Origin: an uncultured Mycoplasmataceae bacterium | GTDB taxonomy: Bacteria > Bacillota_I > Bacilli_A > Mycoplasmatales > Mycoplasmoidaceae | Assembly: GCA_949289925.1 (NCBI GenBank) | Contig: CASEPW010000044.1 | Coordinates: 1-14,983 of the forward strand | Reading direction: 5' to 3' | Length of the DNA stretch: 14,983 nt | Shown: positions 1 through 14,983 of the stretch, one piece after another | How the letters are laid out: the number at the start of each line of letters is the position of its first letter | Position numbering within the stretch: position 1 is the first letter of the stretch | Made by a program: the position numbers and the translations under genes | Notes under the pieces: generated by a model | Database searches by the model: none | What the model saw: the letters and a program-made list of their open reading frames with translations, nothing else | Told to the model about the DNA's origin: nothing

Positions 1-3000
1 ATCAGAAGATAAGAAATTATTAAAAATAGTATCAGATAAATTTACACTTGTTGATATAGAAGTGGAATAATTAATTGAACCAAAACCAGAAATAGTAATA
101 GGAGAAGAATATAATTCAATTGAATTATTTTGTAAATTACCTCTACTATCATAGTAGGTATTAATATAAAGTGGTTCAATTGAAATAGTTCCTGTTAAAT
201 TATTTCTAATAATTTTATTTCTATCTAAAACAATTGAATTTCTATTGAATTCATCTGGTAAATTTGTAAAAATATTATTTCTAGAATTATATAAAAAATC
301 TAACAATTCTCTATCACTAAAATTAGTTGGTAAAATTTTAGATATTCCAGGTAAAGATATAGAAATATTTGGAACTATTTTAGTTGATGAAATAGATTTA
401 AAACCTGTAAAAATTATATTACTAACTAATGAAATAAGTTTTTGTTGAGTACCAAATTCGTCAAAATAATTCGATAATATAACTTGAGCATTTATTTGTC
501 CTGAAAAATTATCAAAAGAATTTTCATTTAAAATAACTTCAATATCACTCTTAGCAAAGTCTGATGGTAAATTTGTAAAAATGATATCTTTATTTTTTCA
601 AATAATATCTAATAGCATATTACTGTTATACGAAGTCGATAATATTTGATCAACATTTTCCAAACTATATGATTTTAAAATTCTTGTTGGACCTATTAAT
701 TTAAAACCTGATATTGAAATTTGGCCAAGTAATGGTTTTGTTGTTTCTGTTTTACCAAATGCATCATAATAATTTAATACTTGGATATCAATTACTAAAA
801 TTCCAGATTCATTTATAATATTTCTAATAACTATGTTTTTTATTTCAATATTTTGTGGATATGAAACAAAGAAAAAAGAAAGGTTATCTTTAATAAGATT
901 TTCAATTGATAAATCATTATATGATTCGGCAGATCAAATTTTTAAATCACTTGCATAAATATTACTATATTCACTAGATGGTGGAATTCTAAAAGAATTA
1001 ACAATTTCAGTTGGAGAAATTTTCTTAAAACCATAAATTTTAATATTATTTCTTTCCAACATATATGATGAATTTTTAATTAATAATCCTTCATAATTAT
1101 AATAAGTATTTAAAGCGACATCAATTACTATGTATGATTCATTATTTGTTGAAATTCTATCAACAATTTTAATAAAAATATTATCTTTATTAAATAATCC
1201 GTTTGTTGGGAAATTCTTTATCAGTGGACTTGTTGGATTATTTGGATCAGTATCATTAAATAATAAATCTTTTAACATGTTTTCATCAACATCAGCTGAT
1301 GAAACATTGGCAACATTAGTTAAATAAACAATACTTTCAATAGAAGTAGGTGAAACAGAATGAAAACCTAAAAATCTAATATTTGTATAAAGAATATCAT
1401 TTGTTACTACCTTACCCGTAGAGTCAAAAAAACAATTTACTTTTATAAATGCATCTATATAACCGCCAGCATTATATTTATTTATTTGTTCAATAAACAA
1501 ATTTCTATCTAAATCAAATGAAGAAGGTAATGGTGAAACAATTAAATTAATATTATTTTTAATATATTCTTTTAATTCATCATCTGAATAATCTGTAGGA
1601 TCTATTTCTGAAACATCTGGAATAGTAATTTGTTTTTTAATATTTGTTGGTTCTATAGAAGAAAAACCTTTTATTGAAATATATTGTATAGGTCAAGTAG
1701 GAGTATTAATTAAAAAACCTGTATCACTATAATATAAATTAAGTGTAAATGATAATGTTATAGTACCCGTTATATTGTTATATTGATATTGATTAATAAT
1801 TATATTATCATTAGTAAAACCATCAGGTTTATTTTTAATATTATTAGAAATTATTGTTTTCACTAAATCAATACTAGCTTCTGATGGTATGATATCTGGA
1901 TTACCTGAAAAATTAGGGTCATCGACAATTTTAGTTGGATTATTTTTTTTAAAACCAATTAATGAAACTTCAGGGAAAGAAATAAATTCTCCTGGAACAT
2001 CATATACACTACCATTTGGATAAACAAATTTATCTAATCATGGTGAAACGATTATTTCTCCGTCAACGTTATTTATTTTTTTATTTGGTAGTTCAATGTT
2101 ATCATTAGTTATATTTATGTTATTTATTGTATTAATAGAATCTAATAAAACTTGTATTATTTCATCATCAGTAAAATTTTGCGCTAATATATTTGTTGAA
2201 TTAGGAATATTATCAATAATCAAAGGGAAAATTGTTGGTTTAACAGATTTAAAACCTGTTAGTGTGATATTTTCTCTTTTTTTATAACTTTTAACTAATA
2301 CAATATCTAAACCATTTGAGCTAATTGTATCTGGAACTTTTTCATAATCATAAATATTATTACATGAATAACTAATAGTTAAAGTACCTAAAATATTTGA
2401 TGGAGTAACATCATCAATAAGTATATCTGATTCAACCATATTATCTGGTTTATTACTTAAATTATTAAAAATAATATTTCTAATTTCAGAATAATTTGTA
2501 CTAAATTCAGTTGGCAATGTTGTAGTTGAATTTGGAACAATAATTTCATCTGGAATAGTTGTTAGACTTAATTGCTTAAATCCATATAATTCAAAATCTC
2601 TAACAAAATAAGGTTGTGGTACAAAAATATATGATCCATTATCATCAACAAAATGAGCCGGTATTGAAATATCAAAAAATATTTTTCCTTGTTCGTTTGA
2701 AAACCTGAAATTAGAAATAGTGTAATTAGTAGTTATTGGAACATTTTCTACTATAGCATTATCATCTAAGATTTGTCTAAGTTGATTAGAATCTAAATAA
2801 ATTGTTTGTGGAATTATATTTGGATTATTGGCATTAAATCTTGAACACTTTAATCCTGTTGCACCCGGTGCAGGATAAAAGTTACCAATAGTAATTTTTA
2901 CAGAAGAAAAATTTGTAGTTACCACTTGTCCTTGATCATTATAGTATCTTGTAAGAGTGACATACATATCAATAGTCCCGTCACCACCATGAACATCTCA

Positions 3001-3165
3001 ACCACCATTTGGCGAATCTTTATCAAATTGAATATGATCTCATCTAAAACCCGGTGGTTTGTTGTTAATAAAATCAAAGATGATTTTTTTAACTTCATCT
3101 TTGTCAATATTATAAACATATTGCTTTTTATTGAATGATTTATTAAAAAAATCTAAAAAACCTTG
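1..3165 (-). repeat. Tandem protein-repeat array of gene A (10 units visible)
   Basis: Ten diverged units of about 96 to 112 residues. The Gly of the GF signature is encoded at 2884-2886 (degenerate, GNFYPAPGAT), 2581-2583, 2254-2256, 1954-1956, 1666-1668, 1366-1368, 1030-1032, 706-708, 403-405 and 85-87. Examples of the signature are GFKSVKPT, GFKKNNPT, GFKKISPT and GFKLIGPT. Each is preceded by a YY(D/N)..G turn motif about 25 residues upstream. Units are related as protein but not as near-identical DNA. Confidence 0.88.
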
Positions 3166-3354
3166 AGAATCTATTGTAGTAGCTTTTGAAGTATCTGGAT
3201 TTGGAATAGGTGTTGGTCCAGCTTTTGCAATTTTGTTTGAAATAACTGGATGATTAATATTATGAGTATTGTTAATTAATGAAGCAACAAATGTAGACAA
3301 CAAACCTACAGAAATTATTGAACTAATTATTCTGAACTTAATTTTTTTACTCAT
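1..3354 (-). CDS. Giant modular surface protein A (C-terminus beyond window), Lipoprotein_17-like repeats
   Basis: Open for 1118 codons from ATG at 3354 to the window edge, with TGA read as Trp at 3040, 2998, 2038, 1693, 934 and 598; I checked that no TAA or TAG falls in frame. The start is secure: an in-frame TAA lies at 3364-3366 and no other ATG follows it. Residues 1-8 are basic and 9-27 hydrophobic (signal or membrane helix), with no lipobox cysteine. Residues 45-61 are a Pro/Thr-rich linker. From about residue 64 come repeat units of roughly 104 residues; the GFK-type signature sits at residues 157 (degenerate), 258, 367, 467, 563, 663, 775, 883, 984 and 1090. The first unit carries a Gly/Trp-rich insert (W105, W119). 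By analogy with gene B, a C-terminal membrane helix is expected off the left edge. Probably an exported cell-surface protein; ligand and role unknown. It lies 27 bases downstream of B. Confidence 0.9.
3274..3354 (-). other. N-terminal signal / membrane helix of protein A
   Basis: Residues 1-8 (MSKKIKFR) are basic and residues 9-27 form an uninterrupted hydrophobic stretch (IISSIISVGLLSTFVASLI), followed by a polar Asn-rich segment. No cysteine follows the hydrophobic core, so this is not a lipoprotein signal. The small residues at its end (VAS) could allow signal-peptidase I cleavage; an uncleaved anchor is equally possible. Confidence 0.8.
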
Positions 3355-3376
3355 ATATAATATTTATATTATATAT
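3353..3376. repeat. 11-bp perfect inverted repeat across the start of gene A
   Basis: ATATATAATAT at 3353-3363 is mirrored exactly at 3366-3376, separated by two bases. The arm nearest the gene includes the A and T of the ATG, and the other arm includes the candidate -10 box. Stem bases are all A/T, so an RNA hairpin would be weak. There is no T-run after it to suggest a terminator. Confidence 0.6.
3368..3373 (-). promoter_or_regulatory. Candidate -10 box (TATAAT) before gene A
   Basis: A perfect TATAAT on the minus strand ends 13 bases before the ATG of gene A, inside a 27-base spacer made only of A and T. A transcript from it would have almost no leader, which fits the absence of any purine-rich ribosome binding site. 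I see no clear -35 element. In such A/T-only DNA the hexamer could occur by chance. Confidence 0.35.
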
Positions 3377-3381
3377 TAAAA

Positions 3382-6300
3382 TTATATTTTGTAGTATTTA
3401 TATCTAATTAAACGATAAACAAAGAATATTATAACTGCTAAAATAACTGTAGATGATACACCTATGGCAGTATAAATAATAATTTCAGGAGTAGAAATAT
3501 TATTGTCACTAGATGTTTTAAAACCTTTAATAACAAGAGTAAATGAAACTCCATTTGTAGTATCTATTAATTTTGAAGTTTCAGAATCAAAGAAATTAGT
3601 GATTCTTAATTTGTTAACAACTATAATACCAGCACTATTATCAGCTGTATATGATTCAAATCCTAGTAACCCTCTTTCACTTGTTAAATCATTTGAATAA
3701 ACAATTGAAGAAATAATTAATGTCTTAATTTGTTCTTTTGGGTCAGCAACATTTAAAAATTCATTAACTGTTTGATAATCATTTCCGATCGGTGCATAAA
3801 CTGTTCCTCCATTTTTAGATAGAACAACATTGAAGTTACCTATAGCTGTAGGTGGTTGTTTTGCAAAACCTGATAATAAAATTTGTTTATCAGGTGAAGG
3901 TGTTGTTTGCAATTCACCATTTTCATCAAAATAATTATTAATAGATAAGTTAAATTTTATTTGTCCTAGTTTATCATTAACTATAACTTCTTTAACAATA
4001 ATGTTATCCTTTGTAAAATCTCTTGGTAAATCTTTAAAAAATAAAGTTTTCTTATCAAAAATTAGTTCTCTTAGAGCTTCTATTTTAGAGTTTGGATAGT
4101 TTGAATTTGCAAAGAATTCAGATGGTTTTTGGTTAGGTCAATTAACAACAGGATTATCGTAAATTAAAGTAATAGGATTTGATAAAAAACCTATAATTGT
4201 TAATTTCTTTTCACTAGAATTTTCTGTAGTTAAAACCCCATATTTATCATAATAATTATTTATAGAATAATTAATAATTATTTTCCCTGATGAATCATAT
4301 GTCGCTACATTATTAATAAAAATAGAATCTTTTGTAAATGAACTTAAATTTAAAAGGTTTGAGAAAATCATACTTCTGTTGTTGTATATTATTTCTCTCA
4401 TGTCTTGATTATTTCTATAAAATTCAGATGGTGGAACTTTTGATACATTTGATAAAGAAATTTGTGATGAAAATAATGTTGCTGTTGTTGAATTAAAGCC
4501 ACCAATAGTTATTTCAAATACTTTATAGTTTGTTGGAGTAGACATAACAAGATTACCTTCAGGGTTATAATATTTAGCTAATGAAACTGAAAAAGTTATT
4601 GTACCATTTAAATTATCAAATGATTGATTAGAAATATTGAAATCAGTAGCTGAAAAATTTGGTGGTAAATTATCAAATATTTTACTTTGGTTATCGATAA
4701 TAATATCTAATAAGTATTGATCATCGAAACATAAATCTTGTGGTGTTTTATCTGATGGTGGGTTTGGAACTTGGAAGAAATTCACAGCAGTTGTTTCAGA
4801 TTTTTTTTGTAAATTTACAATTTCTATTTCAAAAATAGCTAAATTTGTATCTTGAGCATTAATTATTAATTCACCTGATGCATCATAATAGTCAGTGATA
4901 CTAAACTTAACTTTAATACTTCCTTTATTGTTAGTTGGTGATAACGATATAATATTTTTTTGAGTAAAATTACTATTAGATAATTCTATAGGTAAATTAA
5001 ATAATATTCTTTTTTGATATTTAATAATAAAATCGATAATCTGGGATTTTGTTATGTCTGTTGGCAAGAAATTAGCTAAATCTGTATTTAAATCTAATGC
5101 TGATATTTCATTAATAGAAGTTGTTGGAGAAATTGATTTAAACCCTTTAATTGAAATATTTTGAATTAATGGAGAATTAATTCCACCATTATCAATTGTA
5201 ATTAATTCACCAATTGCACTTATATATTTATACAATTTAATTCTAATATCAATTTCACCTTTTAAATTATAAGTATTTATAATATCTACATCAAAATCAT
5301 TTTCTGTTATTCCTGAGTCAGGTAAATTATTAAAAATTAATCTTCTGTTGTCAAAAACTATTTTTTTAACTTCACTAGTTTGAACTGATGAAGGAAGGAT
5401 TGATGAAATGCTATCAGAAACAAAAAATTTGTTTATATGAGTTGGATATAATTTTTTATAACCTGAAAAAGTGATGCTTCATGGTTTTAATGAATCTAAA
5501 TTATTAATTGGATCATTAACATTTACAATATTACCTGTTTGGTCATAATAATTATTAATATATAATAATGCATTAATATTACCTGTTAAATTATCGACTT
5601 TTAAAATTTTAACTTTAACAATATCATTTTGCGGATTAAATAAATTTGTATCATGAGCAATGAATTTTCCAGATGAATTTTTTACAATTGTTAATAACTC
5701 ATTTTCTGTTTCTTCAGATGCTAATTTATGTGAAAAAGTATCAGATTCATAGAAAGAAATAACTTCAGTTGGTGAAACTTTTCTAAATCCATAAATTGTA
5801 ATAGTTTGAGTTAAAGGTTTTTTAGGATTATTAACAATATTACCTTGAAAATCATAATAATTTTTTATTGAAACTTTTGCAGTAATATAGCCCTCTAAAT
5901 TATTAACTTCAACAAAATTGTCCTTTGTACCTGGTAATAAATCTGCTCTTGAAAATCCTGGAGGGTATTGCTTAATTAAATTATTGTTGTATACATAATC
6001 TAAAAATGTAGAGTAAGAAATGGAGTGAACTGGTTGAATTTGTGGAGAAGAAGATGGTAAAAATAAAGAAGGTTCAATGTAAGTTATTAAATTATTTTTT
6101 GCAAAACCTTCAAAAATAATTGTTTTAGGAACAAAACCTGAATCTGATAATTGTGAATATTGATCATAATATTTTGTTAATTCAATTTTAGCAATAATAA
6201 TACCTTGGTTATTTGATGGTATTAAATCAGAAATTATAATATTACTAATATTAAATTCATTAGGTATAGAAGAAATTATTTCATCCTTATTGTTGAAAAC

Positions 6301-9300
6301 ATATTCAGTTAATTCTGGGATTGAAACTGATGATGCAAATTTAGAAGTTAATGCAAGAGAATTAACAATAACTCTATCTTTCACCACTGTAGGAGAAATA
6401 GATAAAAAACCAGTTAGTAACAGCTGTTGTTCTAATGGCCAAGCTGAAGAGTCATTTGGCAAACAAACTACTAAATTTGATGACTCATCGTAATAATTAT
6501 AAAGTTTTATTGTTACAAAAATTTGACCTTGTGAATTGATGTATGAATCTGAGGAAAGTTCAATAACTATTTGATCATCAGTTATATTTTCTGGGAGACT
6601 CGAAAAAATTACATCTTTATTACTTTTTATAATTTTTGAAATTTTATCTAATGATAATGAACTAGGTAGAACATTTTCCTGACCTTGAACATAAAATTCT
6701 GAAATAATTTCAGTTGGATAAACTTTTTTAAAACCAAAACATCTAACCTTTGCTTTAGCTTGAGAAGAAACAAAAATACCTGTTGATGAATAATAATTAC
6801 TATAAGTTATTTCAACAATCAATGAACCAATTAAATTTGAAACAGAGTTTTGAAGAATATTAACACTATCAATAGTGAATGCTTTATTATTTAATTTATC
6901 TTTTGGATAAGATCTAACAAAAAGAGATAAATTATTTGATAAGATAGTTTTTAACTCATATGGAGACATTTCAGAAACTAACTTATCACCAACCTGATTA
7001 GCTGGAAGAGTAACTTGACTATCAATATATGTAGGTGCAGTTGATTTAAAACCTCTAATTACAAATCTATTTGCTTTTTTTGGTATAGAATTTTCTATAT
7101 TTCCTAAAGAATTATAGTAATTAGTTATTGATAAATCTAATGTTATTGAACCATCAATATTATTTCTAACAATTAAATTTTGATTCTTAATAGTAATTGA
7201 ATTTAATGTAAAAATATTTTCAGGAATAGGAATAAAAATTAATGACTTATTATCATAGATAATTTGTTTTATTTGTTCTTCAGATAAATCTGAAGGAGAA
7301 ATATCACCAACATTAGGTAGAACTACCCCTGAATTTATGATTGTTTCACTGATAGTTTTAAAACCTTTTATTGTCACTTTTTTGTGTTGTAAAGGTCTTA
7401 AAGGATCATTAATTAAATTTCCATTTTCATTGTAATAAGTTGATGTTGATAATAAAATTTCAATTGAACCAATACTATTAATTGGAGTTATTGCATCATC
7501 AACTATAATTGATGATTTATTGAATAATTCAACTGGTAAATTTTCATAAAATTTTGAGAAATTATTATAAACAATATCTATAATTTCACTCTTGTTGAAA
7601 TCTGAAGGTAACTTATCTGAATAACCCACAACAGTAACTAAATTATTAATTTCAGTAGGAGAAATCGTTTTAAAACCAGATAAATAAACTTTATATAATT
7701 CTGGTAATGTTGTTTGAATGATACCTTGATCATCAAAATAATTTGTAATGTTAACATCAAACTCTACAACACCTGTAATATTTGAAGATGTTATGTTACT
7801 AATTACTATATTATTTTCTATACTAAAATCACTAGGTAAAGTACCAAATATTTTGTTGTAAACTACATTTTTCAAATATGAAATATCATTTGCAGCAAAA
7901 GCAGCAACTTTGTCTATTAATTCTGTTTTTCACTCATGGTCATCTGGTAATTTTGTTGGGATTACAATCTTAAATCCTGAAATTGTAACTAATTCAGGTA
8001 ATTCTTTAAAGTCCGGACCATCGTATACTAAACCTTCATCATTATAGTATTTGTTTAATGCAATATTAAATGTAATTTCTCCTAATAAATTATTAAAAGT
8101 TATATTTAATAATTCTATATTATTAATAGTTGTTCCTGACACAGGATTATTAATTAAACGATCTAAAACAAGAGTTTTTAAATAATTTATATCTGCAACT
8201 TTATCTGAAGCTACTATATCATATTGATAAACAATCAATTTTGTAGATATTGATGTAGGTTTATTTTTTCTATATCCACCAATAACAACTGTTTTTAATG
8301 AAGATTCATAATCTTGTAAAATACCTTCAAAGTTATATCATTTTTTATATGTAAAATTAATAGTGATGGTTCCATCAATATTTGAAAAAGTAGAATCAAG
8401 TTTTACATCAAGATCATTTAATGTAAAATTATTAGGCAAGAAAATAGTTCTATCAATAATCATTTTCTTTATACCATCTAAATTTTTAGTAAACTCTTCA
8501 CTCGGTAATACGTTTGGATTACCTAATGCATTAAAATTAGCATTAGGATTAACATCTGTTTCACCAATTTTTCTAAAACCAATAATCTCTACTTCAGGCA
8601 ATTCTTTAGAGGAAATATTTAATTTAAAATTATTTCCTTCTTCAAAAAAATTAGTAATTATAGGAATAAAAGAAATTTTTCCATCTTCAGAATTTGCGTT
8701 TATTGAGTCTTCTTTAATAGATAAAATAGTTTCAGAAAAATTACTTGTGTAATCTTGAACCTGGTTAATAAGGTGTTTCTTCATAAAATCAATTATTTTA
8801 GTTGGATTTGTTTTAAAATCATTTGTAGTTGCTTTTGGGTTATTAATAACATAAGAAGGATATTCAAATCTTGTGTAACCATTTACTTTTTTAAATCCTG
8901 TAATTACTAATTTTTGTGGTTCAAAACCTGTTGTTTGTTCTTCACCATTATTATCATTATATTTTGTTAAGGTAACAACAAAACTAAGTGTACCTTCAGC
9001 ATTATTGCATTCAATATCTCCAATTTGTATATCACTTGTATTAAATGTTGGAGGTGGATTAATTATTAAATCATTTTTCATAATGATTTCATTTTTAATA
9101 TATTCATAATTACCACCAAATTGAGCAATTTCATTAGGATCTCCCAATTCTAAATTAGAAGTGTTTATTTCAGTTAAAATAGAAGACTTAAAACCTGTAA
9201 TTCTAATTGTTTTTTTGAAAGTTTTAGATGAGTTGAATTGTCCATTATCTTCAAAAAATCCATCAAAACTAACACTCACATCAACATATGCTTTTTCTGC

Positions 9301-10701
9301 ATCTGAAATAATTTCTAAATTAATATACTTTCTATTAACATCTAATTCAAAATTCATTGGTGGATTTTCAATTCAACCAATTACAAGTTTATTTATTTCT
9401 TCATTCATTGCTTCATTATAAACTTGATTAAAAAAAGGATTATCTGCTGGTAATACTTTTGTTGTTGGTAAATCTGTAGGATATGTTTCTAATACTTTAA
9501 ATCCAGTAATTGTTATGTTAAAAGGTTCTTTATCATCATCAGGTAAAGTATTTACCGGATCACCATTGGTATTAATATATTTTGAAAGAGTGAAAGGAAT
9601 TGTAATAGAACCATTTAAATTATCAATAATAAGATTATCTTTAAAAACTATTGAATCCTGATTAAAATCTAATGGAGCAGCTCTAACTTTTGATGATAAG
9701 AATTTTTTAATCTCAAACCTAATTTTAGAATTAGATCAATCCATATTTCAAGTTGCAGGATACATAAATTGATCTCTAAATTCAGGAATTGTATTTAATA
9801 ATTCTGAAATATCAAATGGACCTTCAAAATATGTATTTGATCAACTAACTCTTGTAACATTAGCTGCATTAGTTGCTTTAAAACCAGGAATTACGAATTC
9901 GTATTCATTCATGTCCATTGGATTATTTGTTTTATCAATACCTATACCTGGATTTATTCTTAAAATTAAACTACCCCTTTTGTCATCGGGAATAATTTTA
10001 ATTTTTGTGTCATTAATTGTTTGTGAAATTACATTATTAAAATTAATCTTTATTTTTTTATAAAAATTATTTTTATCTCTAATAAAATCACTAGGAGAAA
10101 TTTCATTATTTATATTAAGTCTAGATGAATCAATTGAAATTGTTGATTCATTGAATGGTGAAAAAACTTGAATATCATCACTATAATAATCTTTGGCAAT
10201 AATTAAATTTTTATTATTTACAACATTTAACAAATTAACATTTTTATTCGCATATTTTACATTTGCATATTTATCTATATTTCTTGTTGAAAAAAATAAT
10301 GATGAATTATCAAAATTAATTACATCATTCTTAGAAGCATGTTTAATGTCTGAATTTTCTAAAATTCTTATAGATTTATTATCATTAATATCTAAATCAA
10401 TAAATGAATCTTTTATCTCAAATGACAATTCATTAGAATTTAAACTTTGCAAAGGAATAGTAGGTGCGAAATTAGGAGCAATTAAAAAATCATCTAATTG
10501 TAATTCAATGCCACTTGGTTCACTTGGCATTTGAATATTTTCTTGAATATTTGAATCAATTTCTTGATTATTTATAGCTGAAATATTTTTATGTTTGTTA
10601 TTTAAAATTAACAACGGAGAAGAAAAGACAAAAGTACTTATTGATAATACAATAAAAAAATTAAAAAACTTTTTAATTTTTTTTGACTTTAAAAAACTCA
10701 T
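3382..10701 (-). CDS. Giant modular surface protein B, complete, 21 Lipoprotein_17-like repeat units
   Basis: A complete gene of 2439 codons plus TAA (3382-3384), read with TGA as Trp at 9841, 9748, 9736, 9373, 8338, 7930, 5479 and 4138. The ATG at 10701 is the only one after an in-frame TAA at 10717-10719. Order: basic residues 1-14; hydrophobic 15-33; non-repeat Asn/Asp/Ser-rich region about 34-199; 21 repeat units from about 200 to 2406; membrane helix 2407-2429; tail RLIRYKYYKI. A typical unit runs LPS(D/E), a helix-like I..N...IF.NLP..F, then I.I......G.I...V.L..YYD..G, and ends GFK..SPT. The unit resembles mollicute PF04200 from memory; no search was run. There is no lipobox, so this is probably a signal-exported protein anchored by its C-terminus, or held at both ends if the N-terminal helix is not cleaved. 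A surface adhesin, coat or antigen role is inference. It shares architecture with C and A and lies 37 bases after C. Confidence 0.93.
3415..3483 (-). other. C-terminal membrane helix of protein B
   Basis: Residues 2407-2429, from IIIYTAIGV to VIIFFVY, are a 23-residue hydrophobic segment followed by the basic tail RLIRYKYYKI and stop. By the positive-inside rule the repeats would lie outside the cell and the tail inside. Confidence 0.88.
3484..10104 (-). repeat. Tandem protein-repeat array of gene B (21 units)
   Basis: The signature Gly or its equivalent falls at residues 273, 400, 503, 602, 708, 809, 909, 1009, 1113, 1217, 1323, 1431, 1532, 1638, 1747, 1853, 1963, 2068, 2171, 2278 and 2393, a mean spacing of 106. 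Variants include GFKTISPT, GFRKVSPT, GYRKNKPT, GYKKLYPT, GFAKQPPT and GFLSISPT; unit 17 (residue 1963) has lost it (NLQKKSET). The first spacing (127) is the longest. On the plus strand the periodicity shows as recurring ttaaaacc and tcataataat words about every 300-320 bases. Confidence 0.92.
10105..10602 (-). other. Non-repeat N-terminal region of protein B
   Basis: Residues about 34-199 lack the GFK signature and the NLP..F segment. The stretch is Asn/Asp/Ser/Ile-rich with a Pro-containing part near residues 58-85 (PSEPSG, APNFAPTIP). I do not recognise a family. Gene A has only a short linker at the matching place, so this region is specific to B among the genes whose N-termini are visible. 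Confidence 0.6.
10603..10701 (-). other. N-terminal signal / membrane helix of protein B
   Basis: Residues 1-14 carry six lysines (K5, K7, K8, K10, K11 and one S-K pair context), then residues 15-33 are hydrophobic (FFIVLSISTFVFSSPLLIL), then a polar stretch. There is no lipobox cysteine. A possible cleavage after VFSS is a guess. Confidence 0.75.
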
Positions 10702-10733
10702 ATATTTTATTATATATTATATATATAAAATAT
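10702..10733. repeat. 9-bp perfect inverted repeat before gene B
   Basis: On the minus strand ATATTTTAT (10725-10733) pairs exactly with ATAAAATAT (10702-10710), enclosing 14 bases that contain one TATAAT. The second arm abuts the ATG. The arms are A/T only and there is no terminator-like T-run. Confidence 0.5.
10709..10721 (-). promoter_or_regulatory. Candidate -10 boxes (two TATAAT) before gene B
   Basis: TATAAT occurs on the minus strand at 10716-10721 (14 bases before the ATG) and at 10709-10714 (7 bases before). The first matches the distance seen before gene A. The 37-base spacer is A/T only and has no Shine-Dalgarno sequence; a third TATAAT sits at 10732-10737. Promoter activity is inferred, with chance a real alternative. 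Confidence 0.35.
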
Positions 10734-10738
10734 TATAT

Positions 10739-13700
10739 TTATTTTAAGCCACGTATTCTCTTGTATCTAAATATAAAATATACAAATAAAACCACTGCAA
10801 CTAAACCAACAAATCCTAAAACACCATAAATAGCATATTTGATAGTTGGATTTTCTTTTGAAATTGGCAAGGAATTTTGGATTTTAAAACCTGTGATTGT
10901 AATTTCAATATTTTCTTCATTGATAAATTCACCTTTTTGATTAAAGAAGTTTGAAATATTTGCAGTAACCTTTATTGAACCTTTTTGGATGTCATATGAT
11001 TGAGGAATATAACCTAATATTTCAATTTTTGTATTTTTATTATTTGGTAAAGGAGTTATATTTGAAACTAATGTATTTGCCATTATAGATAATTCTTTAA
11101 ATTGTTGATTAATTTCTTCTGAAGACATATTTTCAAATTCAATTGGTGCGATAGCTTGATTACCTATAGAAATAGACATCCCTTTTGTATTAATCATAAT
11201 ATCATCAATTTTTGTAGGATTAGTTGATAAAAATCCTGAAAATTTAACCTTTTGTGTTAATCTTTCTGTTGATGTTAAGACTCCATTCTTATTATAGAAA
11301 TTAGTAATTGAAACATTAGCTTCAATTGTTCCAGACAAGTTATCATAAGAAATTATTTCAACAGGAAGAATAGAGCTTTCATCAAAATTATTAGGCAAGT
11401 TAACAAATGCATTATTATTAGATGTACCTATTTTTGATACAAGGAATTGTCTTAATTGATTTGGAGTAACAAATTGTGGAATTTGCTCTGTTAAATCTTT
11501 ATTATCTATTGAAATTAAACTATTAATTGATGTTTTTGGTGTTTGTTTAAAACCTGTAATCTTCAAAATTCTAGTAGTTTGTACCAAACTAACATTAGAA
11601 TCATCACCATAATAATTATTAAATGTTATATGAACAACTAATTCGCCCTTTTTATTTGCATCTAAATTTTCATTTATAGGAGCGTAAACTTGTAATAAAT
11701 TATCATCAATATTAAAATCATTTGGCATATTCTTAAAAATTTTGTTTTCAAGATTTTTAATCAATTCTTTTAATAAATTTGAAGAATCAGGAGAAGTTAT
11801 ATATTCATACGGACTTTTTAAATATTGAGATGAATCTAATTCCTTAATAGAAACAGTAGTAGATATTTCAGAAGGAGAAATTTGTTTAAACCCATAAATA
11901 TATACAATTGGTTTTAAAGGATAGTTTGTAGAAACAAAAATATTACCATTGGAATTATAATATTTGTATAACTCAATCGTTGCTGATATAACACCATCTC
12001 TATTATTTTTACTTTCAATTACTACATCAAAATCTGATAAATTTAAGGTTTCATTAACTAAATTATTGAATATATAATTTTTATTTTTAAATATTATTTC
12101 TTTCAACATTGCTTCATCTACATTTGAAGGAGAAATATTTGTATATCCTGATAAAATGATTGAACTATTTATAGATGTTGGTTTGTTTTTCTTAAATCCT
12201 GTCAATTCTACTTCTGATGATAATAATGTTGGAGAGTTTTGAACTAATCTTGATTGTTCATCGTAATAAGTAGATAAAGAAACTTCAACAACAAGTATTC
12301 CTTCTTTATTATTTCATTTTTGTGTTTTCTTTACCTGGAAGTCTTGAATAGTTAATTCATTTGTAGGAAATGAATTTATGAATAATTCTCTATTATTTCA
12401 TAGATAGTAATGTAAATCATTTTCATTAACCTCAGAAGGTAATTCATTTGAGAAACCTACAACATTTAAAGTTTTGTTTATGGTTGTTTGATCTGCTTTT
12501 TTAAATCCACTAATTGTAATAAACTCTTTTAATGATTCTCCTGAATTTTGAGCGACAATTAATTGACCTTGACTATTATAATATTTATTCAATAAAATAT
12601 AAGCAGTTATTTCACCTTTTTTATTTGATTTTTCATCGACTGAAATTGAAAAATCTGCTTGTGTAACTCCTGCAGGTAAATTTGAAAAAATTACATCCCT
12701 ATTAGCATATATTTTTTCTGATATTTCTTGTTCACTAACACTTGAAGGTAAAATATCTTCATATTCTTCTAGTGTGAAAATATCTTTAGCATATGTTTGC
12801 CCAATAGTTTCAAAACCTGATAATAAAACTTGTTGAGTATATGTTTCTCCTGGTTTACTTAATAAACCATCATTCTTGTAAAAACTGTCAATTGTTATTT
12901 CACCTGAAATTTGACCTAATTTATTATTAGCTGGTGAAATCGATCTAAATGATTTTATATTTGAAGATTTAAATGATGGTGTAGGATTTTCAATAATACT
13001 TAAAGCATTGTTTCTTAAAATATTTAAAATTTGTTCATCACTAAGATCGCTTGCTTTTTTATTTCTAAACTCATTTAATTTAATAATATTTTTTATTGTT
13101 GTAGCTGTTTCAGTAGAAAGATTAGTAATAGTTATTGGAAAATCTTTTCATGCATCATGCTCATTTATTCATTCTCCACTTTCTTCATAATAATTGTTAA
13201 TCGAAACAATTGCTGATAAAGTACCAATTACATTATTAACAATAATTGTAGAAGGATTTATTCTTATATTAGACATAGTGAAATCATCAGGTTTGTTAAT
13301 TATAGAATTAGATCTCAATAACAATTCAGATATTTTAGTTGTTGTAAAATCAGATGGTTTTGGAATATTTCCAAACGGGAATAAGTTTGATGCATCAATA
13401 GTAGAAAGTATTTCGGTTTTCCCTGGAATTGATTTAAACCCATTTATTATTATTTTTTTAGATAATGGTTGTTTTTTTCCTTCTTCACCTGATATTAATA
13501 ATCCTGTTTTATTATCAAAGTATTTATAAAGATTAACAGTTAATACAATTGTTCCATTAACATTATTAGAGAAAATAAATTTATAATCAAAATTCAGATC
13601 TTCATAACTCAAATTAGAAGGTGAATTATGAATGAAATTATTTCTAAATATTCAAACAACTTCTTTTAATTGTTCTTCAGTAATGTTAGTTGGTAAAACA

Positions 13701-14983
13701 TCTGCATATAAATTATTTGGTAAATCTAAAGTGTCATCAATAGTTGTTGGTTGAACAGGTTTAAAACCTATAAATTTTACACTTTGTTTCATAACATTTA
13801 CTGAATCAAAGTCAGTAACAATAAGTTCACCTATATCATTATTAGCATAATATGTATTTATTTTTAAATCAGCAATTAATGTACCTTCAACATTATCAAT
13901 TATTACATTAGATATTTGAAAATCATCAATTGAAAAAGTTGATGGAACATTTAGAAAAATACTATTTTCATATTCTAAAATAAGATCATTCATAGTTTGT
14001 TTATCAAAAATAACATATTGAATATAATTAGATGAATAATAAACATTATCACTAACATCAATCAACGCTTCAATAGTAGTAGGGTTAATCGCATTGAAAC
14101 CTGAAATATTAACAATGTTTGAAATTGGCATGTTAGTTACAAGACACTCGTCCCCTGAATAATAATTATTAACTGTGACATTAACAACAACAGAACCATC
14201 TTTGTTGTTATAACTTGTTTTTTGTACAGATTCAACTGTAAAAACATCTGGGACATTTTCAAAAAATAAATGAATATTGTTTTTGATAATTTCCATTATT
14301 TTTTCTTCTAGAATTTCCTGAGGTAATATATCACCATATATAGTATTATCTAAAAGTACATTAGGGTTAAAAATAGTTTCCCCTATTTTTTTAAAACCAG
14401 TTAATATTAATCCATTAAAAGATTTAACCTTAGTAGAAATAACACCATTTGAAACATAATATTTATCTATTTTAATATTAACTGTTATTTCCCCTTTTGC
14501 ATTATTTGGTTTAATGTTATATACATCAACTATATTTGTTGAATTGAAATCTTCAGGTAAATTTTTAAATATTTCATTTATATTACCGGCAATAATTGCA
14601 TTTTTTAAAATCTCTACATCCAAACTTTCAGGAATAATTTCTGAATATGTTTCAGGAACCTGAAACGTTTTTATCATTTTTGTTGCTAATATAGTTTTGA
14701 AATTCATTACTTGAACTGTACCTGAACGTAAAGAGTTAGTTTGATTAACAAAATTTGCTGAACCATCAACTATTTCAAAATATCTATCAATACTATATGA
14801 TATAGAAATTGACCCTGTTGAAACATCTTTAGCAATAATTCTTAGATTTAATAAATTTTGATCAAATACAAATTCAGATGGTAAATTTTCAATAAAAATA
14901 TTTATATTATCCTTAATAATTTTTGACATCAACTCTAATGTTACATCGTTTGGAGAAATGTTTTCAGCAACACCATCAGGAAG
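10739..14983 (-). CDS. Giant modular surface protein C (N-terminus beyond window), Lipoprotein_17-like repeats
   Basis: Open from the right window edge through 1414 codons to TAA at 10739-10741, with TGA as Trp at 13652, 13169, 13148, 12398 and 12314. Start and signal region lie outside the window. Thirteen repeat units are visible, with the signature at visible residues 94 (degenerate, MNFK), 196, 295, 406, 515, 621 (degenerate, NLS), 723, 826, 929, 1031, 1144, 1250 and 1365, a mean spacing near 106. The last unit leads through a short linker into a membrane helix at visible residues 1383-1405 and the basic tail RYKRIRGLK, the same ending as in B. The last unit plus helix plus tail is about the same length in B and C (47 and 50 residues), so the two proteins are clearly paralogous. 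It is the first of three co-directional genes. Surface location is inferred from the C-terminal anchor and basic inside tail; function is unknown. Confidence 0.9.
10769..10837 (-). other. C-terminal membrane helix of protein C
   Basis: Visible residues 1383-1405, from YAIYGVLGF to LFVYFIF, are hydrophobic and are followed by RYKRIRGLK and stop. The arrangement matches the end of protein B, including a Tyr/Ala/Ile/Gly/Val start and a V-Y-x plus RYK finish. Confidence 0.88.
10838..14983 (-). repeat. Tandem protein-repeat array of gene C (13 units visible)
   Basis: The signature codons begin (top of Gly or its equivalent) at 14704, 14398, 14101, 13768, 13441, 13123, 12817, 12508, 12199, 11893, 11554, 11236 and 10891. 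Examples are GFKKIGET, GFNAINPT, GFKPVQPT, GFKKNKPT and GFKQISPS. Most units keep the NLP..F segment and a YY turn before G. The array continues past the right edge of the window. Confidence 0.9.

What the first reader, a model, noticed from the sequence alone, without database searches (positions are those of the whole stretch)
3382..10701. A 2439-residue surface protein with 21 diverged copies of one domain
The complete gene B carries 21 signature motifs at a mean spacing of 106 residues between an N-terminal export signal and a C-terminal membrane helix. PF04200-type domains are known in mollicute surface proteins, but a 21-unit non-lipidated, C-terminally anchored string is large for a minimal-genome organism and implies a long surface fibre or coat element. 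Seen: repeats and termini. Inferred: surface exposure and extended shape.
Basis: partly seen in the sequence, partly recalled or inferred. Interest (0 to 1): 0.7.

Follow-up and report, generated by a model that had tools for sequence, protein, structure and literature searches.

The report
Length-fixed giant surface stalk protein
A wall-less bacterium makes a huge protein that looks like a string of about twenty similar beads anchored in its membrane, and relatives keep the same beads in the same order, which suggests a surface stalk whose length matters.

Summary
With TGA read as Trp, gene B is one 2439-aa frame with an N-terminal export-type segment, a C-terminal membrane helix with a basic tail, and 21 GF-motifs spaced 106.05 residues apart. 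Twenty units are firmly homologous; the first is probable. None of the 21 units reaches Pfam's PF04200 cut-off (best 22.2 of 22.4 bits), but profile comparison makes them its distant relatives, and that domain is already used in print as a fibrillar-adhesin stalk domain. B is not alone: 20 unit-bearing frames with 168 units were found in this 648-kb, about 74% complete assembly, several near 2000-2460 aa, and B lies between two of them.

The unexpected part is that the array is frozen. Five homologues (35-53% identity) keep the 20 core units in register, while units within one protein are no more alike than units of different proteins. This is the opposite of length-varying 'periscope' proteins.

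Best reading: a C-terminally anchored, fixed-length extracellular stalk with a variable distal end; a new variant of a known kind. Export, surface exposure, extended shape and binding are inferred.

The parts
3382..10701 (-). Gene B, 2439 aa under table 4 (8 TGA = Trp)
   Evidence: five homologues align over 88-100% of it
10573..10701 (-). N-terminal 43 residues with the export-type hydrophobic segment (residues 15-33)
   Evidence: Kyte-Doolittle scan; cleavage not predicted
9793..10572 (-). Distal N-terminal region, residues 44-303, with probable unit 1 (residues 175-274); less conserved, and residues 44-174 absent from 3 of 5 homologues
3517..9792 (-). Shaft: units 2-21 (residues 304-2395), 99-115 aa each
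3517..3861 (-). Unit 21, membrane-proximal, with an insertion that resembles the last unit of other giants
   Evidence: alignment read by eye
3427..3483 (-). C-terminal hydrophobic helix, residues 2407-2425, followed by a short basic tail
10739..14983 (-). Gene A, 3' part (1414 aa, 13 units, C-terminal helix); its 5' part lies on contig C56 (L126:1-2208)
1..3354 (-). Gene C, 5' part (1118 aa, 10 units, N-terminal hydrophobic segment); its 3' part lies on contig C89 (L122:2-2566)
10702..10738 (-). 37-base AT-rich spacer between A and B
3355..3381 (-). 27-base AT-rich spacer between B and C

Best explanation
Gene B encodes a fixed-length extracellular stalk. The N-terminal segment sends the chain out through the membrane (inferred), the C-terminal helix holds it there with its basic tail inside (inferred), and 20 folded alpha+beta units, distant relatives of the PF04200 stalk domain, form a rod that carries a variable N-terminal end away from the cell (rod shape inferred). 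Selection keeps the number and order of units (conservation shown, selection inferred), so the reach of the rod, or unit-specific contacts along it, is what matters. With its tandem neighbours A and C and the other giants of this genome it probably makes a dense layer on a cell without a wall, used to attach to a host surface or to neighbouring cells (inferred).
For: Unit array and termini; confident repeating domain; profile kinship to PF04200, a domain used as a stalk domain in a fibrillar-adhesin survey (PMC9210967, passages). B's 20 units are reciprocal best matches, all collinear, with 20, 20, 20, 20 and 18 units of five homologues. Conservation along the shaft is even, 36.5-50.3% per unit, and lower before it, 28-29%. 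In 14 of 20 unit-bearing frames of the genome the C-terminus ends in a hydrophobic helix and short tail, judged by eye.
Confidence: 0.6

Rival explanations
1. Coat rather than individual adhesin: the giants together form a protective brush of roughly even thickness in place of a cell wall, and no single tip binds a ligand.
For: Many paralogues in one genome (20 frames, 168 units); the longest are of similar size, about 2000-2464 aa with 17-20 units; conservation is even along the shaft; no adhesive domain recognised.
Against: Other unit-bearing frames are shorter, so the layer need not be even; the N-terminal end varies as a binding end might. The two readings overlap.
Confidence: 0.25
2. Leg of a gliding machine, like Gli349 of Mycoplasma mobile.
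For: Gli349 has 3183 aa with 18 repeats of about 100 aa, lies in a cluster with other giant genes, and is 97 nm long (PMC7052211 and PMC6935860, passages).
Against: Gli349 has its membrane segment at the N-terminus and its foot at the C-terminus; B has its lasting helix at the C-terminus. Only two ATP-synt_ab matches were found, both on contig C64, so no second F1-like set was seen, but the assembly is about 74% complete. Sequence kinship to Gli349 was not tested.
Confidence: 0.05
3. Variable antigen: a repeat protein kept for recombination and immune escape.
For: PF04200 relatives are numerous in other members of the family, and mollicute surface proteins are often variable (recalled).
Against: The 20 core units are kept in register in six proteins; unit pairs average 28.5% identity and share at most 17 exact bases; no unit-length tandem array at DNA level.
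Confidence: 0.05

Closest known systems
PF04200 (Lipoprotein_17) domain; solved in Ureaplasma parvum Q9PRA0 (3K63, 3JVC) and in 2KRT
Fibrillar adhesins (Firmicutes and Actinobacteria survey, PMC9210967)
   Same: Long row of domains, export-type N-terminus, C-terminal anchor; PF04200 counted there as a stalk domain (passages)
   Different: Membrane helix as anchor in a wall-less cell; no adhesive domain recognised
Periscope Proteins (PMC8201768)
   Same: Tandem folded domains proposed to form a rod that projects an N-terminal end (abstract and opening)
   Different: Those have highly similar domains and variable number; B has diverged units and a constant core number
Gli349 of Mycoplasma mobile (PMC7052211, PMC6935860)
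   Same: Giant mollicute surface protein with about 100-residue repeats in a cluster of giant genes (passages)
   Different: Opposite end carries the membrane segment; part of a motor
Giant1-5 of Apilactobacillus kunkeei (PMC12863079)
   Same: Consecutive genes for very large extracellular proteins, a large share of a small genome (abstract)
   Different: 3000-8000 aa, N-terminal beta-solenoid, intragenic recombination; walled host
C-terminal domains of the adhesins P110, P140 (Mycoplasma genitalium) and P1 (M. pneumoniae)

Membership tests
PF04200 (Lipoprotein_17) | Score over the curated cut-off (22.4 bits) | tested here: not met
   0 of 21 units of B; 8 of 21 at E<=1, best 22.2 bits; no row for whole B. 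Gene A: 75.6 bits
PF04200 (Lipoprotein_17) | Profile-level homology to family members | tested here: met
   P 5e-6, probability 86%, against 8 over-cut-off domains from 8 genomes; reversed control P 0.11
PF04200 (Lipoprotein_17) | Same fold as 3K63, 3JVC, 2KRT | tested here: inconclusive
Fibrillar adhesin | Stalk of tandem domains | tested here: met
   20 firm units in a row; rod shape not measured
Fibrillar adhesin | Surface anchor at one end | tested here: met
   C-terminal hydrophobic helix, residues 2407-2425, by hydropathy only
Fibrillar adhesin | Adhesive domain | tested here: inconclusive
   No Pfam adhesive domain in B; residues 44-303 not modelled
Fibrillar adhesin | Binding to a ligand or cell | not testable with these tools
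   needs an experiment
Periscope Protein | Highly similar repeats with variable copy number | tested here: not met
   Mean unit identity 28.5%; 20 core units kept in all six proteins
Gli349-type gliding leg | N-terminal membrane segment with C-terminal foot | tested here: not met
   C-terminal helix; Gli349 layout
Gli349-type gliding leg | Extra F1-like ATPase set | tested here: inconclusive
   2 ATP-synt_ab matches, both on C64; assembly about 74% complete
Gli349-type gliding leg | Sequence homology to Gli349 | not tested
   no Gli349 sequence was compared
Mollicute lipoproteins of the P35 kind | Lipobox cysteine after the signal segment | tested here: not met
   First Cys of B is residue 565; homologues P0004, P0006 and P0007 have Cys in the first 40 residues

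The most novel reading that the evidence does not exclude
A length-locked, titin-like surface ruler of a wall-less bacterium: a set of giants, each with its own fixed series of 17-21 individually conserved units, sets a defined distance between the cell and its partner, and every unit has its own place and contacts. It would invert the usual view that bacterial surface repeats exist to vary in length or antigen.
Probability: 0.25. Interest if true: 0.72.

Novelty: new variant of a known kind. Interest (0 to 1): 0.5.

Why it matters
Length variation is the feature usually stressed for bacterial surface repeats (for example PMC8201768, abstract). Here a small, wall-less genome gives 12.7% of its assembled sequence to frames that carry one stalk-like unit, and at least one member keeps its 20 core units in order down to 35% identity. 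That makes length itself, as a selected trait, testable, and adds a deeply diverged branch to a domain family whose profile names none of this protein's units at its own cut-off.

Tried and rejected
Frame or assembly artefact: rejected, since five homologues from other assemblies share length and order.

Recent tandem duplication: rejected. A tandem search of the window finds only short arrays, period up to 21, and units share at most 17 exact bases. Percentage identity between units (mean 28.5%) is barely above a shuffled baseline (mean 24.6%, maximum 43.3%), so homology rests on profiles and alignment scores, not on identity.

Other Pfam names: ProRS-C_2 on B (E 0.081), DUF1425 on 2 of 6 rows of the homologue alignment (best E 2.9e-6), and eight single-unit names of which seven are not PF04200. 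None passes its cut-off on a unit of B. I take them as chance or as resemblance; the DUF1425 one was not followed up.

Solved structures by sequence: none for B at E<=1; two rows at E 0.97 and 8.5 for the unit profile, taken as chance. Foldseek: for the three-unit model the only match under 1e-3 is Internalin K with TM 0.16-0.22, which I do not trust; none under 1e-3 for the single unit. Ribosomal and other unrelated rows reach the same Z as PF04200 and P110.

Naming the organism: both genome-contig scans gave no named close relative (9 pattern matches, no relative; 63 distant DnaE relatives). No 16S rRNA match in the assembly. One genome of the same family has a contig of 1,358,633 bases, by recall the length of Mycoplasma penetrans HF-2, which would make the family Mycoplasmoidaceae; this rests on recall.

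The first three-unit alignment was out of register because shifted copies of one protein were mixed, and was replaced, which used 10 of the 37 window triplets listed plus five homologue fragments. The single-unit alignment used 40 of the 44 units of genes A, B and C. A second protein search, with the homologue profile, listed 4 proteins, 2 of them new, and was not pursued. Paper searches listed no paper on this protein; one search found none at all. That speaks only for this library and those words.

Full report
WHAT IS THERE. The window is a whole contig (C44) of a 648,284-base, 108-contig assembly given as 74% complete. Read with TGA as Trp it holds three long frames on the minus strand, in transcription order A, B, C, with spacers of 37 and 27 bases. 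B is complete: 2439 aa with 8 TGA codons. Two of the TGA tryptophans, 924 and 1741, are invariant in the alignment with five homologues, which supports the code.

UNITS. Twenty-one GF-motifs from residue 274 to 2395 give a mean spacing of 106.05. A profile made only from the 23 units of genes A and C gives 20 matches in B, 9.8-70.8 bits (the weakest at E 0.06), and none in 500 residue shuffles; left out in turn, 20 of 21 units score 19.3-77.9 bits against the others and unit 1 scores -0.6. A profile of unit 1 from the three proteins that have it aligns weakly to the rest (39 columns, P 1.4e-4). I units firm and one probable.

ENDS. A hydropathy scan finds two strong segments in B, residues 15-33 and 2407-2425. 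The first cysteine is residue 565, so B has no lipobox; three of five homologues have a cysteine within their first 40 residues, in contexts that do not look like a clear lipobox to me. The basic tail is alike in homologues. Orientation, with the N-terminus exported, is inferred.

WHICH FAMILY. hmmscan gives no PF04200 row for B or C at E<=1, but 75.6 bits for A. In a six-frame search three places in B reach E<=0.001 at 19.1-20.7 bits, below the cut-off of 22.4. Taken singly, 8 of 21 units match PF04200 at E<=1 with 11.7-22.2 bits, none over the cut-off, and 13 do not match. Profile against profile, B's units match 8 over-cut-off PF04200 domains of 8 other genomes at P 5e-6 (probability 86%), A and C units at 6.8e-7 (92%), a reversed control at 0.11, and B's units match those of A and C at 2.8e-26. 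So B is a remote relative of PF04200, linked through A and C, and not a called member.

NOT ALONE. The unit profile finds 135 places in the assembly (150 of 178 candidates scored). In 15 fetched contigs plus the window, 20 frames carry 168 units at domain E<=0.01, and 13 of the 20 have five or more; the frames sum to 27,463 codons, 12.7% of the assembly. Frames with one to three units may be chance. Judged by eye, 14 of 20 end in a hydrophobic helix with a short tail, three are cut at the 3' end by a contig end (C56, C85, C) and three lack it (C107, C17, C5). The two halves of gene A (contig C56 and window) align end to end with P0015 and share 9 end bases; the two halves of gene C (window and C89) align with P0009, residues 2-1123 and 1150-2002, so about 26 residues are missing between them. 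Joined in thought, A, B, C and the frames on C3 and C78 measure about 2150, 2439, 2000, 2244 and 2464 aa; the C3 frame is open at its 5' end. Of the flanking frames scanned, those upstream are transketolase and phosphofructokinase (opposite strand), GrpE, DnaJ, a DnaJ-domain protein, a leucyl-tRNA synthetase, Lon and trigger factor, and downstream a DUF2779 protein and a 137-aa frame without a match. No secretion or motility gene was recognised among these ten.

FROZEN ORDER. The protein search listed 14 homologues (the 7990 candidates sharing most words were scored). Five, P0004-P0008, align over 88-100% of B at 35-53% identity. B's 20 units are reciprocal best matches, all collinear, with 20, 20, 20, 20 and 18 units of these five; median best scores are 164.5-286 against 59-68 for other pairs. 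Inside B, unit pairs score a median of 67 (neighbours 79), much as against units of A, C, P0011 and P0015 (59.5-66.5); shuffled units score 29. In the alignment all 20 units are present in all six proteins with similar lengths. Other counterpart pairs that I chose behave alike: C3 and P0012 18 of 18, P0010 and P0012 18 of 18, A and P0015 13 of 13, C78 and P0011 16 of 19, A and P0013 10 of 13, all collinear; ten pairs that are not counterparts give 3-9 matches, largely out of order. The arrays thus predate the split of these lineages, and I see no gain, loss, move or homogenisation of the core units since. Conservation along the shaft is even (36.5-50.3% per unit, 14 protein pairs); the region before it is lower (28-29%, 3-5 pairs), and residues 44-174 are absent from three of five homologues.

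WHERE ELSE. PF04200 itself matches in 23 of 59 related genomes. In 148 genomes drawn from the order 12 match at E<=0.001, mostly weakly outside the own genus. Gene B was not found full-length in the 5 other genomes of its genus (best 76.5 bits); some are incomplete. The gene is patchy, or too diverged there.

HOW IT PROBABLY WORKS. A fixed-length stalk: exported, held at its C-terminus, units in a row, a variable distal end. Shown: units, termini, model confidence, conserved order, genomic set. Inferred: surface location, extended shape, selection on length, binding. PF04200 was used as a stalk domain in a survey of fibrillar adhesins (PMC9210967, passages). M. penetrans P35, which by recall belongs with PF04200 lipoproteins, binds host gamma-actin (PMC11955645, abstract). 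Periscope proteins vary in length through highly similar domains, and divergence between neighbours is said to reduce misfolding (PMC8201768, abstract and opening); B shows the divergent pattern. Apilactobacillus kunkeei Giant1-5 give a parallel for consecutive giant genes (PMC12863079, abstract), and long proteins without homologues are reported as common in Mycoplasma genomes (PMC4706650, passages).

VERDICT. The conserved order of units is the part that deserves attention. New variant of a known kind, interest 0.5.

Noticed in passing
window 10739-14983 with L126:1-2208; window 1-3354 with L122:2-2566: Genes A and C run over the contig ends; their missing parts are on contigs C56 and C89, so the locus order is C56, window, C89.
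   Followed up: yes
window 3517-3861 and the last units of genes A, C89, C49, C78: The membrane-proximal unit has an insertion and, with the helix, looks like a shared anchoring module of several giants (by eye).
   Followed up: partly
P0004, P0006, P0007 (homologues of gene B): Three homologues lack residues 44-174 of B and start their shaft straight after the signal segment; they also carry a Cys in the first 40 residues.
   Followed up: partly
two rows of alignment A1: DUF1425 matches two of six full-length proteins (best E 2.9e-6) but is not reported for B.
   Followed up: no
L122:2568-4499 (+): Directly after gene C lies a 643-aa protein with a DUF2779 domain (86 bits).
   Followed up: no
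G154:C3:27838-28404 (-): A genome of another family (f7) has two neighbouring strong unit matches (59 and 42.5 bits), which may point to transfer or an old origin.
   Followed up: no
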